This document shows positions 1,056 to 33,781 of a stretch of 39,536 bases of DNA, one piece after another. Numbering within the stretch: the stretch's first letter is position 1; each line of letters starts with the position of its first letter. Source of the stretch: a virus. The position numbers and the translations under genes are program-made. The stretch is from the IMG/VR virus record IMGVR_UViG_3300013115_000236, positions 1-39,536 of that record. One strand, written 5' to 3'. Below the pieces are notes generated by a model. The model had not been told where the DNA came from and made no database searches. It was given only the letters and a program-made list of their open reading frames with translations.

Positions 1056-1099
1056 AATAATTAAGTCAGCATTAAATGACGAATAATTAATATATATTA

Positions 1100-1106
1100 T
1101 ATTTAT
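1100..1106 (+). promoter_or_regulatory. AT-rich TATTTAT element, copy 2
   Basis: TATTTAT about 18 nt before the structured RNA at 1124-1225. A TGACG 17 nt before an ATATTT box upstream resembles the promoter of the sister RNA at 31049, so this is the likely start region of that transcript. Confidence 0.4.
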
Positions 1107-1123
1107 ATATGAAATGAAAAATA

Positions 1124-1225
1124 TCACACTAACTGAAGAATGGGGAGCATAGTTAGAGAAACAGGAGATAGAGATTTAAATCTTCTCAAAAACAACGGAT
1201 ACCCGCTCTACTTTAGAAGGTGTGA
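1124..1225 (+). ncRNA. Structured RNA with pseudoknot core, copy A
   Basis: The outer helix pairs TCACACT (1124-1130) with GGTGTGA (1219-1225), then CTGAAG (1133-1138) with CTTTAG (1211-1216), across an AA/AA internal loop. Inside are GGGGAGCATAGTTA and a 3' part with CTTCTCAAAAACAACG, then ACCCGCTCTA. These match the core of a second copy at 31049-31142, while the outer helices differ in sequence but both pair. GGG (1142-1144) can pair CCC (1202-1204) and GAGC (1145-1148) can pair GCTC (1205-1208), an H-type pseudoknot. It lies just before the gene at 1250. It may be a cis-regulatory leader or a free RNA; I do not recognise the family. Confidence 0.75.
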
Positions 1226-1249: not shown

Positions 1250-1552
1250 ATGATGAAGAGAGAAATTTTGGAAAACTTTAACTTAATGGAAGACATTATG
1301 AATGGTAAAGATGTAAAAGATTTAAACGTCATATTAGAACGAATGGACCAAGCTGAAAAAGATAGAAGTGATATGGCCACAGATATAAAATTTATTAAAG
1401 AGAACCTATTTAATCCACATGAAGGGTTATGGGCAGAATCAAAAAAGAATACTGCATTTAGAGAAAATACTACAAAGTGGAGAAGTACAATAGGTGTTGG
1501 TGTTATAGGATTATCCCTTAAACAGATATGGGATTTATTTACCGGCAGTTAG
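1250..1552 (+). CDS. Coiled-coil protein with C-terminal membrane helix
   Basis: 100 aa. The first two thirds are charged and helical, and a hydrophobic stretch (IGVGVIGLSLKQIWDLF) near the C-terminus can form one membrane helix. This layout recalls XhlA-type phage lysis-associated anchors, but the similarity is only architectural. It follows structured RNA copy A by 24 nt and ends before a terminator, so it is probably a single-gene unit under that leader. Confidence 0.65.
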   Translation: MMKREILENFNLMEDIMNGKDVKDLNVILERMDQAEKDRSDMATDIKFIKENLFNPHEGLWAESKKNTAFRENTTKWRSTIGVGVIGLSLKQIWDLFTGS

Positions 1553-2451: not shown

Positions 2452-2516
2452 CTATAACGAAATAACTAAAGAGCTATAACGAAATAACTAAAGAGCTATA
2501 ACGAAATAACTAAAGA
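2452..2516 (+). repeat. Three tandem 22-bp repeats
   Basis: The unit CTATAACGAAATAACTAAAGAG starts at 2452, 2474 and 2496; the last copy runs into a GAGAGA tract before the gene at 2527. The copies are identical, which suggests recent duplication or slippage. Their position before a small gene leaves open a binding-site array. Confidence 0.85.
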
Positions 2517-2526
2517 GAGAGAGAGT

Positions 2527-4324: not shown

Positions 4325-4561
4325 CGAGATAAATATTATTTAGCTTCGTCCAGTATGTGCTTGTATGTGCTTCGTCCAGTATGTGCTTGTATGTGCTTCG
4401 TCCAGTATGTGCTTCGTCCAGTATGCATTGTATATTGTCATCTATATACTTCGTCCAGTATGTGTTGTGTATTATATGATTTGACGAGGTAAACAAGATA
4501 AAATGGGTAATATTTAATTATCTCGTCATTGTGTCGAGATAAATATTATTTAACTTCGTCC
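4325..4561 (+). repeat. Iteron-like array of CTTCGTCCAGTATG repeats
   Basis: CTTCGTCCAGTATG occurs at 4344, 4370, 4396, 4412 and 4449 (steps of 26, 26, 16 and 37 bp), with CTTCGTCC again at 4554. The array is bracketed by two copies of CGAGATAAATATTATTTA (4325 and 4535), each leading into CTTCGTCC. TCTCG/CGAGA hairpins lie next to both brackets. An 82-residue minus-strand frame here is only the translated repeat. Iterons of a replication origin are one reading; expansion by slippage is another. Confidence 0.8.
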
Positions 4562-8268: not shown

Positions 8269-8342
8269 GGAAACATAGTGTAACGCGGTCGGCACATGGG
8301 TTTGAAGCACCCGAGGTACTGGTTCAATTCCAGTTGTTTCCA
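8269..8342 (+). tRNA. tRNA-Phe(GAA)
   Basis: Acceptor GGAAACA/TGTTTCC and T arm ACTGG-TTCAATT-CCAGT. The anticodon loop TTGAAGC reads GAA, with an unusual G at position 37. D stem GTGT/GCAC. CCA is not encoded. Confidence 0.8.
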
Positions 8343-8347
8343 CAAAT

Positions 8348-8433
8348 GTAACTGTGACCGAGTGGCCGATGGTAACGGGCTGTTAACCCGTCGGATGAAA
8401 ATCCCGTCGTAGGTTCGAATCCTACCGGTTACG
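8348..8433 (+). tRNA. tRNA-Asn(GTT) with long variable arm
   Basis: Acceptor GTAACTG/CGGTTAC. Anticodon arm ACGGG-CTGTTAA-CCCGT reads GTT. A 17-nt variable region contains the hairpin GGAT-GAAA-ATCC, as in class II (Ser/Leu/Tyr) tRNAs. The D arm (ACC-GAGTGGCCGAT-GGT) and the variable arm closely resemble tRNA-Ser(GCT) at 11838, so this looks like a serine tRNA body with one anticodon base changed. Confidence 0.8.
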
Positions 8434-8439
8434 CAACAT

Positions 8440-8516
8440 AACCGCTCATGTTCCAAGGATAATGGCGACGGAGCCTCCAAAACTCTGTGTGGTAAGTTCG
8501 ATTCTTACAGCGGTTG
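8440..8516 (+). tRNA. tRNA-Trp(CCA)
   Basis: Acceptor AACCGCT/AGCGGTT, loop CTCCAAA typical of tRNA-Trp, T arm GTAAG-TTCGATT-CTTAC, discriminator G. The D stem is weak and one anticodon-stem pair is C-A. Confidence 0.8.
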
Positions 8517-8549
8517 CAAAATGGCTTTTTGACAATTAGAAATTTATAT

Positions 8550-8621
8550 GGGGATGTAGTGTAACGGTAACACATTTGGCTTTGAACCAAATACTGGTGA
8601 GTTCGATTCTCCCCATCCCTA
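8550..8621 (+). tRNA. tRNA-Gln(TTG)
   Basis: Acceptor GGGGATG/CATCCCT with one G-U, D stem GTGT/ACAC, anticodon arm TTTGG-CTTTGAA-CCAAA. One T-stem mismatch. Confidence 0.85.
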
Positions 8622-8703
8622 CAATACTTTAGTGATAAAAATATTATTATGTTAAGTAAATATAAATTAGAAAAGCTAATTGAAAAATAATTAAAAATAA
8701 AGC

Positions 8704-8732
8704 TTGACTTTCTCAATTATTGTTCGTATATC
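8704..8732 (+). promoter_or_regulatory. Sigma70-type promoter 7
   Basis: TTGACT, 17-bp spacer, TATATC. It lies between tRNA-Gln and a structured RNA and probably drives that RNA and the second tRNA block. Confidence 0.75.
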
Positions 8733-8771
8733 AAGTGAAGATTGAAATGAAATAATTAAGATTTTTGACAA

Positions 8772-8889
8772 TTTAGGCAACGAATTCTTTCAATTTACGA
8801 ACCAACAGTCCTTCGTTAGATTGAAATTGAATTTGTGGGTGTTGAATGTATATCGTAGCTCGGTCACTACTTCAACACCCGAGCCTAAA
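8772..8889 (+). ncRNA. Three-way-junction RNA, unknown family
   Basis: The closing helix is TTTAGGC (8772-8778) with GCCTAAA (8883-8889). Arm one pairs AATTC (8783-8787) with GAATT (8829-8833), then TTTCAAT (8788-8794) with ATTGAAA (8820-8826). Arm two is a perfect 10-bp GGGTGTTGAA/TTCAACACCC hairpin (8837-8880). GATTTTTATTTTTT follows and may end it. It has its own promoter about 40 nt upstream and no ORF. Confidence 0.75.
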
Positions 8890-8925
8890 AGATTTTTATT
8901 TTTTGATAATTTGTTTACCATAATT

Positions 8926-8997
8926 GGTCCGTTCGTCTAGTGGTTAGGACTCCAGGTTTTCATCCTGGCAACAGGAGTTCGATTCTCCTACGGACTA
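8926..8997 (+). tRNA. tRNA-Glu(TTC)
   Basis: Acceptor GGTCCGT/ACGGACT, anticodon arm CCAGG-TTTTCAT-CCTGG, canonical T loop TTCGATT. Confidence 0.9.
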
Positions 8998-9005
8998 CAA
9001 AATAT

Positions 9006-9081
9006 GGGGCTCGGGAATGCTTGGGGTGTTCGCCTCCCTTGCACGGAGGATATCAGCAGGGTTCGAATCCCTGGAGCTCCA
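9006..9081 (+). tRNA. tRNA-Ala(TGC)
   Basis: Acceptor GGGGCTC/GAGCTCC, D stem GAAT/GTTC, anticodon arm CCTCC-CTTGCAC-GGAGG, T loop TTCGAAT. Confidence 0.88.
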
Positions 9082-9155
9082 CACTCGGTTTTCCGGATGT
9101 TTACCGCAAGTAAGGTATTTTTAAAATACACATCTAAACAAAAAAACGTCCCAAT

Positions 9156-9227
9156 GTACAGGTGGCCGAAATGGTTAGGCAGTAGGTTGCAACCCTTCTT
9201 ATGTCGGTTCGAGTCCGATCCTGTACT
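9156..9227 (+). tRNA. tRNA-Cys(GCA)
   Basis: Acceptor GTACAGG/CCTGTAC, anticodon loop TTGCAAC, T arm with TTCGAGT. Discriminator T, the known identity base of tRNA-Cys. Confidence 0.87.
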
Positions 9228-9232
9228 CAATA

Positions 9233-9307
9233 GGGGAATTAGCTCAGTCTGGTCAGAGCATCTGGTTTACACCCAGAGGGTCATAGGTTCAAATCCTATA
9301 TTCCTCA
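9233..9307 (+). tRNA. tRNA-Val(TAC)
   Basis: Acceptor GGGGAAT/ATTCCTC, D arm AGCTCAG, anticodon arm TCTGG-TTTACAC-CCAGA, T arm ATAGG-TTCAAAT-CCTAT. Confidence 0.9.
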
Positions 9308-9312
9308 CAAAT

Positions 9313-9398
9313 GCCGTGGTCGCATAGTTGGTCGATTGCACCGGTCTTGTAAACCGGAGGATTAATTTCCCACGTTGGTTCAAATCCAACTCACGGCT
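9313..9398 (+). tRNA. tRNA-Thr(TGT) with long variable arm
   Basis: Acceptor GCCGTGG/TCACGGC, anticodon arm CCGGT-CTTGTAA-ACCGG, T arm GTTGG-TTCAAAT-CCAAC. The variable region is 16 nt with a GGA/TCC helix, where 4-5 nt are expected for Thr. The D stem GCA/TGC equals that of tRNA-Ser(GCT). Discriminator T. Confidence 0.82.
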
Positions 9399-9405
9399 CA
9401 CATAT

Positions 9406-9477
9406 ACTCTCGTAGTGAAACGGAAATCATACCTGGCTACGAACCAGGAGTTGGAGGCTCGATTCCTCCCGAGAGTA
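9406..9477 (+). tRNA. tRNA-Arg(ACG)
   Basis: Acceptor ACTCTCG/CGAGAGT, anticodon arm CCTGG-CTACGAA-CCAGG. A34 would need host TadA to become inosine. Confidence 0.88.
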
Positions 9478-9528
9478 CAACTTTAAGGGTATAGACTGAA
9501 AACTAATAAATGAAAATAAGGATATGGT

Positions 9529-9723
9529 GTGAAAAAAGAAATAACATTTTGGGATGATGACTTCAAGGGAAATGCACGAGGTGGTTTCTTTGTAAGAAAC
9601 GATTTACATAAGTTCTTACAGAAGTTAAGAGACGCAGGACATGAACCAGTAGGAATTAAAGTTGATGATTCTTTTAACTTGGAAGTGATTGTAAAAGTAC
9701 CAGAAGATTCTGAAAAGAATTAA
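9529..9723 (+). CDS. Small unknown protein within the tRNA array
   Basis: 64 aa from a GTG start, with AAGGATATG upstream. It begins KKEITFWDDDFKGNARGGFF and ends in an acidic tail. A compact alpha/beta fold is likely (FLQKLRDAGHEPVGIKVDD, LEVIVKV). No family recognised. It is flanked by tRNA-Arg and tRNA-Lys and must be translated from the tRNA precursor transcript or an unseen promoter. Confidence 0.65.
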   Translation: MKKEITFWDDDFKGNARGGFFVRNDLHKFLQKLRDAGHEPVGIKVDDSFNLEVIVKVPEDSEKN

Positions 9724-9730
9724 AACAAAT

Positions 9731-9804
9731 GTACCCGTAACTCAATGAGGTAGAGTAACTGGCTTTTAACCAGTAAGTTGTAGGTTCGAGGCCTACCGGG
9801 TACA
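9731..9804 (+). tRNA. tRNA-Lys(TTT)
   Basis: Acceptor GTACCCG/CGGGTAC, anticodon arm ACTGG-CTTTTAA-CCAGT, T arm GTAGG-TTCGAGG-CCTAC. Confidence 0.9.
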
Positions 9805-9809
9805 CAATT

Positions 9810-9893
9810 GGTCGAGTGGTGGAATTGGTATACACAACAGACTTAAAATCTGTCGGTCTTATGGCTATGGGAGTTCGAGTCTCCCCTCGACTA
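9810..9893 (+). tRNA. tRNA-Leu(TAA)
   Basis: Acceptor GGTCGAG/CTCGACT. Leucine-type D arm (GTGGAATTGGTATACAC), anticodon arm ACAGA-CTTAAAA-TCTGT, class II variable arm. Confidence 0.9.
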
Positions 9894-9935
9894 CAATTTT
9901 TGAAATAAGTATAATAAAAAGTTCAGTATTATTTT

Positions 9936-10018
9936 GGGAAGTTATACCGTAGGGGTAGCGGGACTGGCTGTAACCCAGTTGCTTTCGAGCTCGGGTGGTT
10001 CAACTCCATCACTTTCCA
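9936..10018 (+). tRNA. tRNA-Tyr(GTA)
   Basis: Acceptor GGGAAGT/ACTTTCC, anticodon arm ACTGG-CTGTAAC-CCAGT. The long variable arm is normal for bacterial tRNA-Tyr. Confidence 0.87.
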
Positions 10019-10023
10019 CAATA

Positions 10024-10096
10024 CCAGCGGTGACCAAGGCTTAGGCAACTGTGTGTTGGATACATGGTTTGGTTGGTTCGATTCCAACCCGTTGGA
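10024..10096 (+). tRNA. tRNA-Pro(TGG)
   Basis: Acceptor CCAGCGG/CCGTTGG. The anticodon arm is best read TGTGT-GTTGGAT-ACATG (anticodon TGG), with two G-U pairs. T arm GTTGG-TTCGATT-CCAAC. An alternative register would read GGA, but the stem pairs worse and no serine-type variable arm is present. Confidence 0.75.
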
Positions 10097-10103
10097 CAAA
10101 AAT

Positions 10104-10294
10104 AACATTCGACCTATCGCTCTACGGAGAGGAAGCTCGGGACTCCACTGCTAAATGTGGGAGACTTAATCGTCGTTAATACCACAGAGGGAGCAATTCA
10201 AATAGACATAGAAGGAATGCAGTTCAATGATTGTCGGGTAGATGCCGAAAGATAAATGATAGGGTTGAAACAGAATCCCGGCTATGAAATGTTG
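10104..10294 (+). ncRNA. rnpB: Minimal RNase P RNA
   Basis: A catalytic-core-only RNase P RNA of about 190 nt. GAGAGGAAGCTCGGGACTCC (10127-10146) matches bacterial conserved region I (GGAGGAAAGTCCGGGCTCC in E. coli). AGATAAATGA (10250-10259) and ACAGAATCCCGGCTA (10270-10284) match the 3' conserved parts (AGATGAATGA, ACAGAACCCGGCTTA). Helix P4 pairs AGC-T-CGGGA with TCCCGGCT, keeps the universal bulged U (10137), and four pairs differ from E. coli compensatorily. P1 is AACATT/AATGTT, P2 CCTATC/GATAGG, P3 only CTC-TACG-GAG, P5 CTCC/GGAG. The specificity domain shrinks to about 45 nt (TGTGG/CCACA). It sits 7 nt after tRNA-Pro and 6 nt before a tRNA-Met-like gene, so it is probably cotranscribed with its substrates. 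Confidence 0.9.
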
Positions 10295-10300
10295 TTTATT

Positions 10301-10369
10301 GGCAATGAACAAGGTGTAAGACAGAGCTCATATCTCTGATTCTAATAGGTTCAAGTCCTATCATTGCCA
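10301..10369 (+). tRNA. tRNA(CAT), Met/Ile2 type, reduced D arm
   Basis: Acceptor GGCAATG/CATTGCC, anticodon arm CAGAG-CTCATAT-CTCTG, T arm ATAGG-TTCAAGT-CCTAT. Only 14 nt lie between acceptor and anticodon stem, against about 19 normally, so the D arm is short or missing. With CAT it could be elongator Met or a lysidine-modified Ile tRNA. Confidence 0.75.
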
Positions 10370-10371
10370 CT

Positions 10372-10441
10372 CGCGGGGAAAGGAAGTCCTAACGGAGTCT
10401 CATAAGCTATCGTTGTGGTGGAGCATTACCACCCCCCGCTA
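10372..10441 (+). tRNA. Initiator-tRNA-like RNA (CAT), degenerate
   Basis: CGCGGGG pairs with CCCCGC but leaves C1 against T72, the mismatch that marks bacterial initiator tRNA. The anticodon loop is CTCATAA, identical to E. coli tRNA-fMet. However the anticodon stem has a mismatch and lacks the three G-C pairs of initiators, the D region is short, and the T-like hairpin GGTGG-AGCATTA-CCACC lacks TTCRA. It may be a decayed initiator tRNA or a tRNA-like decoy. Confidence 0.5.
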
Positions 10442-10448
10442 CTAAAAT

Positions 10449-10522
10449 GCCCGAGTGATGGAACTGGTATACATACTGGTTTTAGAAACCAGGTTTTGGG
10501 AGTTCGATTCTCCCCTCGGGTA
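10449..10522 (+). tRNA. tRNA-Leu(TAG)
   Basis: Acceptor GCCCGAG/CTCGGGT, leucine-type D arm, anticodon arm CTGGT-TTTAGAA-ACCAG. The variable arm is shorter than in tRNA-Leu(TAA). Confidence 0.85.
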
Positions 10523-10524
10523 CT

Positions 10525-10598
10525 GTAACCGTGGTGTAAAGTGGTGAGCATTGTTGGCTGTGACCCAACAGGTGGGGATTCGACTTCCCCCGGTTACC
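10525..10598 (+). tRNA. tRNA-His(GTG)
   Basis: Acceptor GTAACCG/CGGTTAC, anticodon arm TGTTGG-CTGTGAC-CCAACA, discriminator C as in His tRNAs. The -1 base is T, not the usual G, so the His identity G-1 is not encoded at the standard place. Confidence 0.85.
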
Positions 10599-10603
10599 CA
10601 AAT

Positions 10604-10675
10604 GCTCCTGTAGTTCAATGGTTAGAATGAGGTGCTTATAACCCTTAGATTCAGGTTCGATTCCTGGCGGGAGTA
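10604..10675 (+). tRNA. tRNA-Ile(TAT)
   Basis: Acceptor GCTCCTG/CGGGAGT, anticodon loop CTTATAA, T loop TTCGATT. The anticodon stem has one mismatch and one G-U. Confidence 0.85.
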
Positions 10676-10712
10676 CAAAAATGTTTAATAAAAAAATAAC
10701 AGGAGAATAGTT

Positions 10713-10895
10713 ATGACAAGACGAGAAGAACTATACAGTAAAAATGAATTTTCAATCTATGGGGTATTTAGATTCGCTTCATATTTACTTGCGGCATTCG
10801 CAATGTATATGGGAAATTTACAAATTGCTGCTGTAGCATTTGGATTTGGAGCAACGCTTGGATTCATTAGACGATTAGCAAGAATCTGGGAATAG
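10713..10895 (+). CDS. Small membrane protein within the tRNA array
   Basis: 60 aa with two hydrophobic segments (about residues 16-35 and 37-51, the second FGFGATLGF) and charged ends. ACAGGAGAATAG gives a strong ribosome binding site. Flanked by tRNA-Ile and tRNA-Asp. No family recognised. Confidence 0.7.
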   Translation: MTRREELYSKNEFSIYGVFRFASYLLAAFAMYMGNLQIAAVAFGFGATLGFIRRLARIWE

Positions 10896-10903
10896 AAAAA
10901 AAT

Positions 10904-10977
<74 letters not shown>

Positions 10978-10982
10978 CAAAC

Positions 10983-11055
10983 GCAGTAGTAACTCAATTG
11001 GCAGAGTGCCGTCCTTCCAAGTCGGAGGCTGCAGGTTCGATTCCTGTCTACTGCA
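10983..11055 (+). tRNA. tRNA-Gly(TCC)
   Basis: Acceptor GCAGTAG/CTACTGC, anticodon loop CTTCCAA, T arm GCAGG-TTCGATT-CCTGT. One T-T mismatch in the anticodon stem. Confidence 0.87.
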
Positions 11056-11070
11056 CAAATAATTATATTA

Positions 11071-11111
11071 TATCTGTAATAGATAATTAAATATGATACT
11101 TATTACAGATA
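11071..11111 (+). promoter_or_regulatory. 11-bp inverted repeat before the cupin gene
   Basis: TATCTGTAATA (11071-11081) and TATTACAGATA (11101-11111) are perfect inverted copies around a 19-nt spacer, ending 2 nt before the GGAG ribosome binding site. It could be an operator dyad or an mRNA hairpin that affects ribosome access. Confidence 0.65.
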
Positions 11112-11126
11112 GAGTGGAGTTTGAAA

Positions 11127-11468
11127 ATGGAAATACATGATAAAGGTTGGGGATACGAAAAGTGGATAGTGAATAAAGAAGAATACTGTGGGAAACTTTT
11201 ATTTTTTGAGGCAGGAAAGCATTGTTCATTTCACTACCATAAAATAAAAGATGAAGTATTTTATTTACAGTCTGGATTGATAATAGTTAGATATTCCGAT
11301 GAAAATAATTTAGAAGAATCTAAAAAACTTATTATGAAACCAGGAGATTCATTTCACGTTCCAACTGGATTAAGACACCAGATGTTAGCATTAGAAGATA
11401 GTGAATTGTTTGAATTTTCCACACAACATTTTGAAGATGATAGCTATAGGATAGTCAAAGGTGATTAA
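11127..11468 (+). CDS. Cupin-fold protein, phosphomannose isomerase-like
   Basis: 113 aa. KGWGYEKWIVN and EYCGKLLFFEAGKHCSFHYHKIKDEVFY match the cupin domain of type II mannose-6-phosphate isomerases, including the His-x-His...Glu metal-ligand set. The second cupin motif lies in MKPGDSFHVPTGLRH. Start at ATG 11127 because GGAG lies 9 nt upstream; an in-frame TTG at 11121 is less likely. It overlaps the nucleotidyltransferase by 8 nt, so the pair probably acts on one sugar-phosphate pathway. Confidence 0.78.
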   Translation: MEIHDKGWGYEKWIVNKEEYCGKLLFFEAGKHCSFHYHKIKDEVFYLQSGLIIVRYSDENNLEESKKLIMKPGDSFHVPTGLRHQMLALEDSELFEFSTQHFEDDSYRIVKGD

Positions 11469-11859
11469 AGTTTGGACTAATGGGTGTTTCGATATTATAC
11501 ATCGTGGACATATAGAATTATTTAAGTATGCCAAATCACTTGGTGATGAACTTATAGTTGGTGTAGATACTGATGAGAAAGTTCAAAAAGATAAAGGTGG
11601 TGGTAGACCAATAAATACATTAGACGATAGAATAGAAATGTTGAACTCTATTAAGTATATTGATAAAGTCATACAGTTCAATACAACTAATGAATTACGA
11701 GATTTGGTTAGAGTTACATTGCCAGATATAATGGTAGTTGGTTCGGATTGGAAACATGGACAAGTAATTGGTAGAGAATTTACAAAGGAATTAAAATTTT
11801 TTGATAGGGTAGGTGATTATTCAACTACTAAAATTTTGGAGAGTTGGCAGAGTGGCTAA
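11461..11859 (+). CDS. Cytidylyltransferase-family nucleotidyltransferase
   Basis: 132 aa from a GTG start. The nucleotidyltransferase signature is clear: GCFDIIHRGHIELF holds the HxGH motif, DTDEKVQKDKGGGRPIN follows, and the C-terminal ISSTT-type motif appears as YSTTKI. The size fits the RfaE C-domain/TagD group, which joins CMP or AMP to a sugar or polyol phosphate. The substrate cannot be told. It overlaps the cupin gene, and its last seven codons lie inside tRNA-Ser(GCT). Confidence 0.85.
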   Translation: MIKVWTNGCFDIIHRGHIELFKYAKSLGDELIVGVDTDEKVQKDKGGGRPINTLDDRIEMLNSIKYIDKVIQFNTTNELRDLVRVTLPDIMVVGSDWKHGQVIGREFTKELKFFDRVGDYSTTKILESWQSG

Positions 11860-11923
11860 ATGCAACGGTTTGCTAAATCGTCGAGGTGAAAATCTCACAT
11901 AGGTTCAAATCCTATACTCTCCG
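11838..11923 (+). tRNA. tRNA-Ser(GCT)
   Basis: Acceptor GGAGAGT/ACTCTCC, D arm GCA-GAGTGGCTAAA-TGC, anticodon arm ACGGT-TTGCTAA-ATCGT, long variable arm with GAG...CTC. Its first 22 bases overlap the end of the preceding CDS, so mRNA and tRNA maturation compete. Confidence 0.9.
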
Positions 11924-11927
11924 CTAT

Positions 11928-12011
11928 GGAAGGTATCCGGCTGGATGAGGAGCTTGTCTTGAAAACAAGTAATGGGTTAGACCATTCGGGGTTCGAGTCC
12001 CTGACCTTCCG
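11928..12011 (+). tRNA. tRNA-Ser(TGA)
   Basis: Acceptor GGAAGGT/ACCTTCC, anticodon arm CTTGT-CTTGAAA-ACAAG, class II variable arm with AATGG...CCATT, discriminator G. Confidence 0.9.
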
Positions 12012-12016
12012 CGAAT

Positions 12017-12089
12017 GCTCTCGTAGTGTAATGGAATAGCACAAGGGATTTCTACTCCCTTAGTGAGGGTTCGAGTCCTTCCGAGAGTA
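12017..12089 (+). tRNA. tRNA-Arg(TCT)
   Basis: Acceptor GCTCTCG/CGAGAGT, anticodon arm AGGGA-TTTCTAC-TCCCT. The only tRNA here followed by an encoded CCA (12090-12092), perhaps by chance. Confidence 0.9.
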
Positions 12090-12134
12090 CCAATTATTAC
12101 CACTTATTAGTGGTTATTAGTAGTTATTAGATAT

Positions 12135-12206
12135 AGCCCTATCGTTCAATGGTTAGGACATATGCCTGATAAGCATAAAATCGTGGTTCGACTCCACGTG
12201 GGGCTA
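12135..12206 (+). tRNA. tRNA-Ile(GAT)
   Basis: Acceptor AGCCCTA/TGGGGCT, anticodon arm TATGC-CTGATAA-GCATA, T arm CGTGG-TTCGACT-CCACG. Last tRNA of the array. Confidence 0.88.
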
Positions 12207-12226
12207 CAAATATAGGAGAATATAAA

Positions 12227-31003: not shown

Positions 31004-31032
31004 ATGACGTTTTTCCAGAATTTCTTGATATA
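31004..31032 (+). promoter_or_regulatory. Sigma70-like promoter, variant class
   Basis: ATGACG, 17-bp spacer, GATATA, followed by TATAG as at 8002. The predicted start near 31039 is 10 nt before structured RNA copy B and about 210 nt before hsp20. Confidence 0.65.
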
Positions 31033-31048
31033 TATAGATGAGAGACTT

Positions 31049-31142
31049 CATGTTAATAAAAGAATGGGGAGCATAGTTATACATAATGGAGAGTAAAATT
31101 CTTCTCAAAAACAACGAAACCCGCTCTACTTTTATTAACATG
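31049..31142 (+). ncRNA. Structured RNA with pseudoknot core, copy B
   Basis: A perfect 14-bp closing helix (CATGTTAATAAAAG, 31049-31062, with CTTTTATTAACATG, 31129-31142). The core AATGGGGAGCATAGTTA and CTTCTCAAAAACAACG...ACCCGCTCTA are shared with copy A at 1124. GGAGAG and CTTCTC (31088-31106) form an inner hairpin. GGG/CCC and GAGC/GCTC give an H-type pseudoknot. It lies in the leader of the chaperone operon and may control it, or be released as a separate RNA. Confidence 0.8.
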
Positions 31143-31148
31143 AAAAAA

Positions 31149-31216
31149 GAATTGTCGCTCAATTGAGGACAATAACATAACGGAATATTCAACGCTCAAT
31201 AGAGGTTGATATTCAA
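31149..31216 (+). promoter_or_regulatory. Two further leader hairpins before hsp20
   Basis: ATTGTC pairs with GACAAT (31153-31173), and GAATATTCAAC pairs with GTTGATATTC with one bulge (31181-31215). They follow RNA copy B and precede the AGGAG of hsp20. Confidence 0.55.
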
Positions 31217-31249
31217 TAGTTGACTAACGTAACTAATAGGAGAAATAAA

Positions 31250-31723
31250 ATGACTAAAGTTGCTTTTCGTACAGGTATCCCACATTTCGATAGGGATACA
31301 TTTTTAACACCATTCGACAGAGTTTTTGATCAAATGGTTGAATCACAATTTCCAGAAATCGTAAAAACAGTTGGTGTAAAACCATATGGTAATTCTGCAT
31401 ACCCACGTGTGAACGTATATGAATACGACGACAAAGTTGGTATCGTAGCAGAGATTCCTGGATTAAATAAAAAACAACTATCCGTAGATGTTGAAGATGG
31501 TGTATTGACTATCTCTGGTGATAAACATAGTGCATTTGAAGATGATGGTGCTAAAGTTATCCGTAGAGAGTTAAAACAATCTTCATTCAGACGGTCATTT
31601 GAATTAGGTGAATTGCTCGATGGAGATAACATTTCAGCTAACTTCAAAGATGGTATTCTTTCAGTAGAAGTACCAAAGATAGAACCGGTAGTACCGAAAA
31701 AGCGTTCGGTAAAAATATCATAA
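31250..31723 (+). CDS. Hsp20-type small heat shock protein
   Basis: 157 aa. The alpha-crystallin domain is clear: YPRVNVYEYDDKVGIVAEIPGL, LSVDVEDGVLTISGDK, SSFRRSFELGELLDGDNI and NFKDGILSVEVPK with the conserved A/GxLxVxxPK-type strand. It holds unfolded proteins for refolding, here probably by the GroEL/GroES pair next to it. Start at ATG 31250 with AGGAGAAAT upstream; an in-frame TTG at 31220 is not needed. Preceded by a structured leader of about 210 nt. Confidence 0.93.
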   Translation: MTKVAFRTGIPHFDRDTFLTPFDRVFDQMVESQFPEIVKTVGVKPYGNSAYPRVNVYEYDDKVGIVAEIPGLNKKQLSVDVEDGVLTISGDKHSAFEDDGAKVIRRELKQSSFRRSFELGELLDGDNISANFKDGILSVEVPKIEPVVPKKRSVKIS

Positions 31724-31743
31724 ATAAGGTTATATAATATAAA

Positions 31744-31815
31744 GGGGTTCAACCGATTTTTAGTTTCCAATATAAACAAACTTAAAAAACAACTGAGCCC
31801 CTCTATATATTAAAA
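31744..31815 (+). promoter_or_regulatory. Long-range hairpin between hsp20 and groES
   Basis: GGGGTTCA pairs with TGAGCCCC, and flanking TATA/TATA bases extend it, around a loop of about 40 nt. No T run follows the 3' arm, so it is more likely an attenuator or processing site than a terminator. Confidence 0.5.
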
Positions 31816-31845: not shown

Positions 31846-32136
31846 ATGGGTTACAATATAAATCCGCTGTCGGATAGAGTAGTTATAGAAGCAGCAGAAG
31901 CTGACGAAGTTTCTACTGGTGGAATTATCCTACCAGATACAGCACAAGAAAAACCACAACGTGGTAAAGTAGTAGCAGTTGGTCCAGGTAGGACAACTGA
32001 TACTGGAACATTAGTAAGTCCATCCGTTAATGAAGGTGATGAAGTTCTATATGGTAAATATAGTGGAACTGAAATCAATGTTGATGGTGATGATTTATTA
32101 ATTGTTCGTGAGAATGACATAATGGCTAAGTTATAG
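31846..32136 (+). CDS. groES: Co-chaperonin GroES
   Basis: 96 aa, full family length. [42 protein letters not shown] contains the mobile loop (GGIILPD) that binds GroEL, and the ending [10 protein letters not shown] is typical. It caps the GroEL ring during folding. CAGGAG precedes the ATG; groEL follows 10 nt after the stop. Confidence 0.97.
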
Positions 32137-32146
32137 GAGAAATGAA

Positions 32147-33781
32147 ATGGCTAAAGAAATAAAGTATAACTCACAATCCCACTCAGCTTTGATGTCTGGT
32201 GTAGACCAACTCGCGAACGCAGTTAAGGTTACATTAGGTCCAAAGGGTAGGAATGTAGTTATTGAAAAGAAGTTCGGTTCACCACTTATCACCAAAGATG
32301 GTGTTACGGTGGCAAAGGAAGTCGAACTTGAAGATAGATTTGAAAGTGTAGGAGCAGAACTTGTTAAGGAAGTTGCTTCCAAGACATCTGATATTGCAGG
32401 TGATGGAACAACTACAGCTACAGTTCTTGCACAGTCAATTATTAATGAAGGCATTAAGAATGTTACAGCTGGTGCAAATCCAATGTCTATTAAACGAGGT
32501 ATTGATTATGCAGCAGGTAAAGTTGTAGAGTTCATTAAAGAATCATCTAAAGACCTTCCTGATAGTTCTCAAATTGCTCAAGTAGCAACCATATCAGCAA
32601 ATGATGATAGTGAGATTGGTGGAAAGATTGCAGAAGCAATGGAGAAGGTTGGTAAGGACGGAGTTATTACAGTAGAAGAAAGTAAAACCGCTGAAACATA
32701 TTTGGATTTCGTAGAAGGAATGCAATTTGACCGTGGCTATCTTTCACCTTACTTCGTAACTGATTCTGATAATATGGAAGCGGTTCTTGAAGATCCATAT
32801 ATCTTACTACATGACAAGAAAATTTCCAATGTGAAAGACGTTCTTCCAATTTTGGAGAAGGTAGTTCAAACAGGGAAACCAATCGTCATAGTAGCAGAAG
32901 ATGTAGATGGTGAAGCACTGGCAGCTCTCGTGGTAAATAAACTTCGTGGAACTTTTAAAGTTCTTGCAGTGAAGGCACCAGGATTCGGAGATAGACGGAA
33001 AGCTATGTTAGAAGATATAGCATCACTAACAGGAGCAACTGTAATTTCTGAAGAAGCGGGTTACAAATTAGAGAACACAACACTTGATTATCTTGGAACT
33101 TGTTCTCGTGTAGTATCTGATAAAGACAATACAACCGTAGTTGGTGGTAGTGGTGATGTAGATACAATCAAATCTCGTATTAATGAAATCAAAGTTCAGG
33201 TTGAAAAATCTACTTCTGATTATGATATAGAGAAACTACAAGAACGACTTGCCAAATTAAGTGGTGGAGTTGCAGTATTGAATGTTGGAGCACCAACTGA
33301 AACTGAAATGAAAGAGAAGAAAGCTCGTGTGGAAGATGCGTTACACGCAACAAGAGCAGCAGTTGAAGAAGGGATTGTCGCCGGTGGTGGTGTTACTTTA
33401 CTTCGTGCTATTTCAGCTCTTGATGATGTTTCACTTGATGATGAACAAATGGTTGGAGTGAATATCATGAGAAAAGCACTTCAATCACCACTTCGTCAAA
33501 TCTGTGAAAATGCTGGTGAAGAATCTTCCGTCGTAGCACGTGAAGTTCTAAACAGTACGAATGGAACTGGATTTGATGCTCGTAATGGTGAATATGTAGA
33601 TATGTTCACTGCTGGAATTATTGACCCAGCTAAGGTTACTCGTGTAGCAGTAGAGAACGCAAGTTCAATCGCTGGTATGTTGTTGACTACTGAAGCAGTC
33701 ATTACTGAAATTCCAAGCGAAGATTCAGCACCTATGATGTCACCAGGTGGTATGGGTGGTGGAATGCCAGGGATGATGTAA
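32147..33781 (+). CDS. groEL: Chaperonin GroEL
   Basis: 544 aa, full length with all functional parts: [32 protein letters not shown] (nucleotide-binding DGTTT), GGGVTLLRA and the C-terminal [11 protein letters not shown] tail. No truncation or frameshift. A phage with its own complete GroEL, GroES and Hsp20 likely folds its own late proteins. TAGGAGAAATGAA precedes the ATG. Confidence 0.98.

What the first reader, a model, noticed from the sequence alone, without database searches (positions are those of the whole stretch)
31049..31142. The second copy leads the chaperone operon
Copy B has a perfect 14-bp closing helix and lies in the roughly 210-nt leader of hsp20-groES-groEL, followed by two more hairpins. 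Control of chaperones by temperature or by a ligand through this leader is plausible. Copy A leads a small membrane-anchored coil protein, so both could answer one signal.
Basis: partly seen in the sequence, partly recalled or inferred. Interest (0 to 1): 0.72.

Follow-up and report, generated by a model that had tools for sequence, protein, structure and literature searches.

The report
Phage leader RNA before chaperone genes
A roughly 100-nucleotide folded RNA with an almost unchanging core sits right after late-type promoters in a group of uncultured marine phages, here in front of heat-shock chaperone genes; it is a real, apparently undescribed RNA family of unknown function, and most related phages lack it at their chaperone genes.

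Summary
The RNA is real. Copy B (31047-31144) has a 16-bp closing helix (14 claimed) and starts a few bases after a late-type promoter, in the ~207-nt hsp20 leader. Copy A (1124-1225) is its homologue. IMG/VR gave 13 distinct sequences in 19 records, 57.8-81.6 bits; other hits stay at or below 27 bits. Outer helices and an inner hairpin covary (0/500 shuffles reach it); the core RAUGGGGAGCAYA...ACCCGCUCUAC is nearly invariant. No Rfam match; no confirmed copy in 84,980 prokaryote genomes.

The chaperone-control reading is only partly supported. The RNA is missing from nearly all ~60 related hsp20 leaders. Other copies lead unrelated late genes near a lysozyme, and one lineage has a second promoter between RNA and hsp20. 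Predicted access to the ribosome-binding site does not depend on copy B, which stays folded at 10-45 C.

What is conserved in this leader is the hairpins after copy B: an hsp20-specific array with a single bulged G, one of them just before the ribosome-binding site in 60 of 63 leaders (shuffled 7.7%). It resembles ROSE thermometers but leaves that site outside the stem.

Best reading: a portable 5' module of late phage transcripts bound by an unknown factor. Function untested.

The parts
31025..31037 (+). late-type promoter (TTGATATATATAG) of copy B and hsp20
   Evidence: same place and similar sequence in hsp20 leaders without the RNA (L146, L156: CTTGATATATATAATCG); all other copies have TATATTTAT-like boxes just upstream. 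Start site inferred.
31047..31144 (+). RNA copy B: P1 31047-31062/31129-31144 (16 bp); core AAUGGGGAGCAUA 31063-31075 and ACCCGCUCUAC 31119-31129; P2 31068-31072/31123-31127; P3 31089-31092/31103-31106
   Evidence: (81.6 bits)
31151..31173 (+). bulged-G hairpin 1: AUUGUC[G]CUC AAUU GAG GACAAU
   Evidence: same architecture in relatives' hsp20 leaders
31183..31214 (+). bulged-G hairpin 2: GAAUAUUCAAC[G]CUC AAUA GAG GUUGAUAUUC
31217..31235 (+). bulged-G hairpin 3, just before the SD: UAGUU[G]AC UAAC GU AACUA
   Evidence: equivalent found in 60 of 63 distinct leaders, 7.7% when shuffled
31238..31242 (+). Shine-Dalgarno AGGAG of hsp20, outside the hairpins
31250..31723 (+). hsp20
   Evidence: PF00011, E 5.6e-20
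31846..32136 (+). groES
   Evidence: PF00166, E 3e-33
32147..33781 (+). groEL
   Evidence: PF00118, E 1.3e-78
1098..1109 (+). late-type promoter TATATTTATATA of copy A
1124..1225 (+). RNA copy A: P1b 1124-1130/1219-1225; P1a 1133-1138/1211-1216; core 1139-1151 and 1201-1211
   Evidence: (78.1 bits)
1250..1552 (+). 100-aa ORF after copy A; no family match; relatives lie next to a GH108 lysozyme

Best explanation
Copy B is a member of a phage RNA family that forms the first ~100 nt of certain late transcripts. SHOWN by sequence comparison: a late-type promoter lies just upstream, usually 7-30 nt; a long covarying helix (P1) closes the RNA; it holds a near-invariant core and a covarying inner hairpin (P3); the module sits in front of different late genes (hsp20 operon, small proteins beside a GH108 lysozyme); and in hsp20 leaders it lies between the promoter and an otherwise normal leader, so here it should be co-transcribed with hsp20. 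INFERRED: the invariant core is the binding site of a trans-acting factor (phage or host protein, RNA polymerase or another RNA) and acts in cis on the life or expression of the transcript. P1 may also protect the 5' end. The core has two nearly isoenergetic, mutually exclusive pairings (GGAGC:GCUCU and UGGG:CCCG), which binding could switch. Separately, the bulged-G hairpins after copy B are the likely hsp20-specific operator (factor unknown).
For: 13 distinct sequences in 19 records, sharp score gap. Covariation: 10 pairs and 33 cells changed on both sides, 0/500 shuffles reach this, slid controls at most 5 cells; RNAalifold chose P1a and P2 by itself. Promoter just upstream of every copy, same strand as the next gene. 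Near-empty sites: L108 reads promoter-GAAAGAATTGTTGCTC where L010 reads promoter-RNA-AAAAGAATTATGTTGCTC. Near-isoenergetic alternative core helices. hsp20-only hairpin array.
Against: No transcript or end data. In L006/L008/L012 the RNA is followed by a T-run and a downstream promoter, so it can be a unit without an ORF. Copy A's ORF and the L188 ORF lack a clear SD. The register of the arms was set by hand. P2 never varies, so covariation neither proves nor disproves it.
Confidence: 0.45

Rival explanations
1. A stand-alone small RNA, made from its own late promoter and terminated or processed at P1, acting in trans; its position before hsp20 is incidental.
For: L006/L008/L012: GUGUGA-UUUUUU directly after P1, then a second late-type promoter before the hsp20 leader. 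Several unrelated neighbours. ORFs after copy A and in L188 have no clear SD. Most hsp20 leaders lack it.
Against: Most copies have no T-run after P1; the terminator scans found none on the + strand here or in L006. In winB, L010 and L013 it lies inside a leader with no promoter between.
Confidence: 0.25
2. A nascent-RNA element that modifies RNA polymerase just after initiation, as HK022 put RNA does, letting late transcripts read through terminators (for example the terminator-like hairpin between hsp20 and groES, 31741-31805).
For: Always first in the transcript, invariant core, indifferent to the downstream gene; a terminator-like element lies in the operon.
Against: Nothing tested on polymerase; sequence and hairpin layout not compared with put; the L006 group has no gene to read into before a new promoter.
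Confidence: 0.12
3. A plain 5' mRNA stabiliser: P1 keeps the 5' end double-stranded against 5'-end-dependent RNase attack.
For: P1 begins at or near the expected start in several copies (L006, L010, L013, winB).
Against: Does not explain the near-invariant core; in L001 and L022-L024 P1 starts roughly 20 nt further in.
Confidence: 0.1
4. A riboswitch or RNA thermometer controlling the chaperones.
For: Invariant core with variable stems is aptamer-like; the operon is heat-shock related.
Against: No expression platform linked to the RNA; SD pairing unchanged with or without it; stays folded 10-45 C; missing from nearly all related hsp20 leaders.
Confidence: 0.08

Closest known systems
HK022 put RNA (processive antitermination; PMC9378689)
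   Same: phage RNA made just after a promoter, acts as RNA, not tied to one gene
   Different: found at late-type promoters here, different layout, polymerase contact unknown; likeness is of position only
ROSE thermometers of small heat-shock genes (reviewed in PMC9450479)
   Same: applies to the hairpins after copy B: hsp20 leader, 2-4 hairpins, bulged G in UYGCU paired with AGGA
   Different: the real SD lies outside the hairpins; no Rfam ROSE hit
RNA-phage coat-protein operator (MS2 type; from my own knowledge)
   Same: lower stem about 5 bp, one bulged purine, 2-3 bp upper stem, A-rich tetraloop, close to a start site
   Different: bulged G instead of A, tandem copies, hsp20 gene, no known binding protein
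IbpA self-repression through its 5' UTR (PMC10474464)
   Same: small heat-shock mRNA leader with hairpins
   Different: the essential Arg93 position is Ser in these phage Hsp20s
Candidate structured RNAs from comparative genomics (PMC2864571)
   Same: conserved core, covarying stems, unknown function
   Different: no Rfam 15 family matches

Membership tests
Any Rfam 15 family (copy B) | score above the gathering threshold | tested here: not met
   only tRNAs in the window; sub-threshold hits only, E 0.33 or worse
Riboswitch | aptamer joined to an expression platform (terminator or SD masking) | tested here: not met
   no + strand terminator in the leader; SD pairing the same with and without the RNA
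Riboswitch | direct ligand binding | not testable with these tools
   needs in-line probing
put-type antiterminator RNA | lies directly downstream of phage promoters | tested here: met
put-type antiterminator RNA | contacts RNA polymerase and suppresses termination | not testable with these tools
   needs in vitro transcription
ROSE thermometer (hairpins after copy B) | leader of a small heat-shock gene with 2-4 hairpins | tested here: met
ROSE thermometer (hairpins after copy B) | conserved UYGCU with a bulged G | tested here: met
   UCGCU in hairpin 1 here, UCGCU or UUGCU in many relatives; hairpin 2 has ACGCU
ROSE thermometer (hairpins after copy B) | the SD of the heat-shock gene is masked in the terminal hairpin | tested here: not met
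   terminal hairpin ends 2-9 nt before the GGAG of the SD in the 60 leaders scored
ROSE thermometer (hairpins after copy B) | match to an Rfam ROSE model | tested here: not met
   (E up to 10)
IbpA-type self-repression | arginine at IbpA position 93 | tested here: not met
   Ser at this place in the phage Hsp20s (KQSSF and similar); placed against IbpA from memory of its sequence and PMC10474464
Intrinsic terminator | GC-containing stem followed by a U-run | tested here: not met
   true by eye only for L006/L008/L012; not for copies A, B or the other lineages

The most novel reading that the evidence does not exclude
A new class of phage regulatory RNA: a portable 5' module of late transcripts whose invariant core changes between two register-shifted pairings when a factor binds, giving unrelated late genes (chaperonins, lysis-region genes) one common signal, here stacked on an hsp20-specific bulged-G operator array.
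Probability: 0.2. Interest if true: 0.78.

Novelty: new variant of a known kind. Interest (0 to 1): 0.55.

Why it matters
It adds a well-supported structured RNA family to uncultured marine phages that carry their own chaperonins. It also exposes a second, much more widespread hsp20-specific operator-like array in those phages. Either could show how a lytic phage times chaperone and lysis-region expression late in infection, and both can be tested with simple reporter fusions in laboratory strains.

Tried and rejected
(1) Conserved upstream ORF: AUGGGGAGCAUA starts with AUG, but frames run from 4 to 30-odd codons and the 3' core is read in different frames, so selection is on the RNA (sequences). 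(2) Pairing of the core with tRNA D-arms (CCCGCUCUAC resembles the complement of GUAGAGC): no window tRNA matches GTAGAGCGGGT within 2 mismatches; for the GGGGAGC side only 2-mismatch hits at chance level. (3) Thermometer. (4) Relatives in cellular genomes: 0 hits to the strict pattern; 24 hits to a relaxed one, none confirmed by the model (at most 14.3 bits). (5) Divergent second copies in large contigs: at most 27 bits, judged chance. (6) L011 and L029 pattern hits: chance (L011 22.5 bits; L029 spans a tRNA). (7) Near relatives among sequenced phages: none for the leader or for Hsp20. (8) Pseudoknot of P2 with GGG:CCC: zero-length linkers, more likely alternatives. (9) The tool does not draw relatives for a virus record.

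Full report
WHAT IS THERE. The window is one whole IMG/VR virus record of 39,536 bases. Copy B folds far better than shuffles (z -4.4). It has a 16-bp uninterrupted closing helix, 31047-31062 with 31129-31144, and the blocks AAUGGGGAGCAUA and ACCCGCUCUAC shared with copy A at 1124-1225. No Rfam family matches.

RELATIVES. DNA-pattern and protein-guided scans of IMG/VR gave, with the window, 13 distinct sequences in 19 records. A covariance model built from 11 of them scores all members 57.8-81.6 bits; everything else is at 27 bits or less. A strict pattern found nothing in 84,980 prokaryote genomes, and relaxed hits were not confirmed. Sequenced phages show no close relative of the leader or of this Hsp20.

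STRUCTURE. RNAalifold on the free alignment picked P1a and P2. In an arm alignment (register set by me, loops left out) 10 of 22 pairs have changes on both sides, in 33 cells. None of 500 shuffles reached this, and partners slid by 1-3 columns gave at most 5 cells. P1b, P1a and P3 covary. P2 (GGAGC:GCUCU) and the flanking UGG and CCC never vary. Forcing UGGG:CCCG instead of P2 usually costs from nothing to about 3 kcal/mol and is better in a few sequences such as L007 and L182. The invariant core therefore looks like a recognition site with two possible registers. The two pairings have no linker between them and are unlikely to coexist as a pseudoknot.

POSITION. Every copy lies just downstream of a TATATTTAT-like late promoter (TATATATA for copy B), usually by 7-30 nt, and on the strand of the next gene. 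Neighbours differ: GH108 lysozyme upstream with a small ORF downstream (L001, L022-L024), lysozyme then a 111-aa ORF (L007, L182), lysozyme then hsp20 (L010, L013), a trypsin-like protease then the small ORF (copy A, L005), and other ORFs (L188). In L010, L013 and copy B the RNA sits between promoter and leader; L108 shows a near-empty site (promoter-GAAAGAATTGTTGCTC against promoter-RNA-AAAAGAATTATGTTGCTC). In L006, L008 and L012 the RNA ends in a T-run and a second late-type promoter precedes the hsp20 leader. Among the ~60 distinct hsp20 loci fetched by protein only those three carry the RNA. It is therefore a portable 5' module, not the conserved chaperone control.

THE REST OF THE LEADER. 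After copy B come three hairpins of one design: lower stem, single bulged G, 2-3 bp upper stem, A-rich loop. A hairpin of this design was found near the end of 60 of 63 distinct leaders, nearly always directly before the SD; shuffled leaders give 7.7%. Its stems vary compensatorily (GUUU/AAAC, GUUA/UAAC, AGUU/AACU; ACU/AGU, UUC/GAA, AAC/GUU). Over 60 leaders, bulged G (108) outnumbers A (42), U (11) and C (6). Tandem pairs are almost confined to hsp20 leaders (54 of 71 by coordinates, and at least one of the rest, L010, is also an hsp20 leader). Hairpin 1 contains UCGCU opposite AGGA with the bulged G, as in ROSE thermometers (features from PMC9450479). But the SD lies 2-9 nt beyond the last hairpin and no ROSE model matches. 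IbpA-type self-repression needs Arg93 (PMC10474464), which is Ser here. The factor is unknown.

MECHANISM. Predicted SD pairing is the same with and without copy B, and copy B stays folded between 10 and 45 C, which speaks against a thermometer. No terminator or SD-masking platform belongs to the RNA. I favour a cis-acting 5' module of late transcripts bound by an unknown factor (0.45) over a stand-alone sRNA (0.25), a put-like antiterminator (0.12; PMC9378689), a plain 5' stabiliser (0.1) and a riboswitch or thermometer (0.08).

LIMITS. No transcript data exist for these uncultured phages. Promoters and starts are inferred from sequence. The pattern scans required near-exact core blocks, so more divergent relatives may exist. 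The hairpin searches used simple rules with mononucleotide shuffles.

Noticed in passing
window 31741-31805; L095, L098, L099, L109, L110, L114, L124, L135, L144: A terminator-like element with a conserved inner hairpin (UUUUUAGUUYYCA...AACUUAAAAA inside a GC-rich closing stem), found directly before or after hsp20 in about ten phages; in the window it lies between hsp20 and groES and lacks a clear U-run.
   Followed up: partly
window 3232-37201 (14 sites; families D1 and D2): Fourteen copies of an early-type promoter CTTGACTTT-N17-GTAAGATC across the window.
   Followed up: no
window 8269-12207: A cluster of 21 tRNA genes.
   Followed up: no
L109, L124, L135 upstream of hsp20: A conserved stretch GGGTAGTAGGTAC...ACATCCCC just before the hsp20 region that may be the 3' end of another, larger RNA.
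   Followed up: no
L098, L107, L113, L116, L144, L157, L159, L160 hsp20 leaders: In a subset the GAGGA of hairpin 1 is followed by AUG UUU GAC UAA (or AUG UUA GAC UAA), a possible 3-codon upstream ORF whose SD would be masked in a ROSE-like hairpin.
   Followed up: no
window 2452-2517 and 4348-4483: Three perfect 22-nt tandem repeats, and an irregular array of a TATGTGCTTCGTCCAG unit.
   Followed up: no
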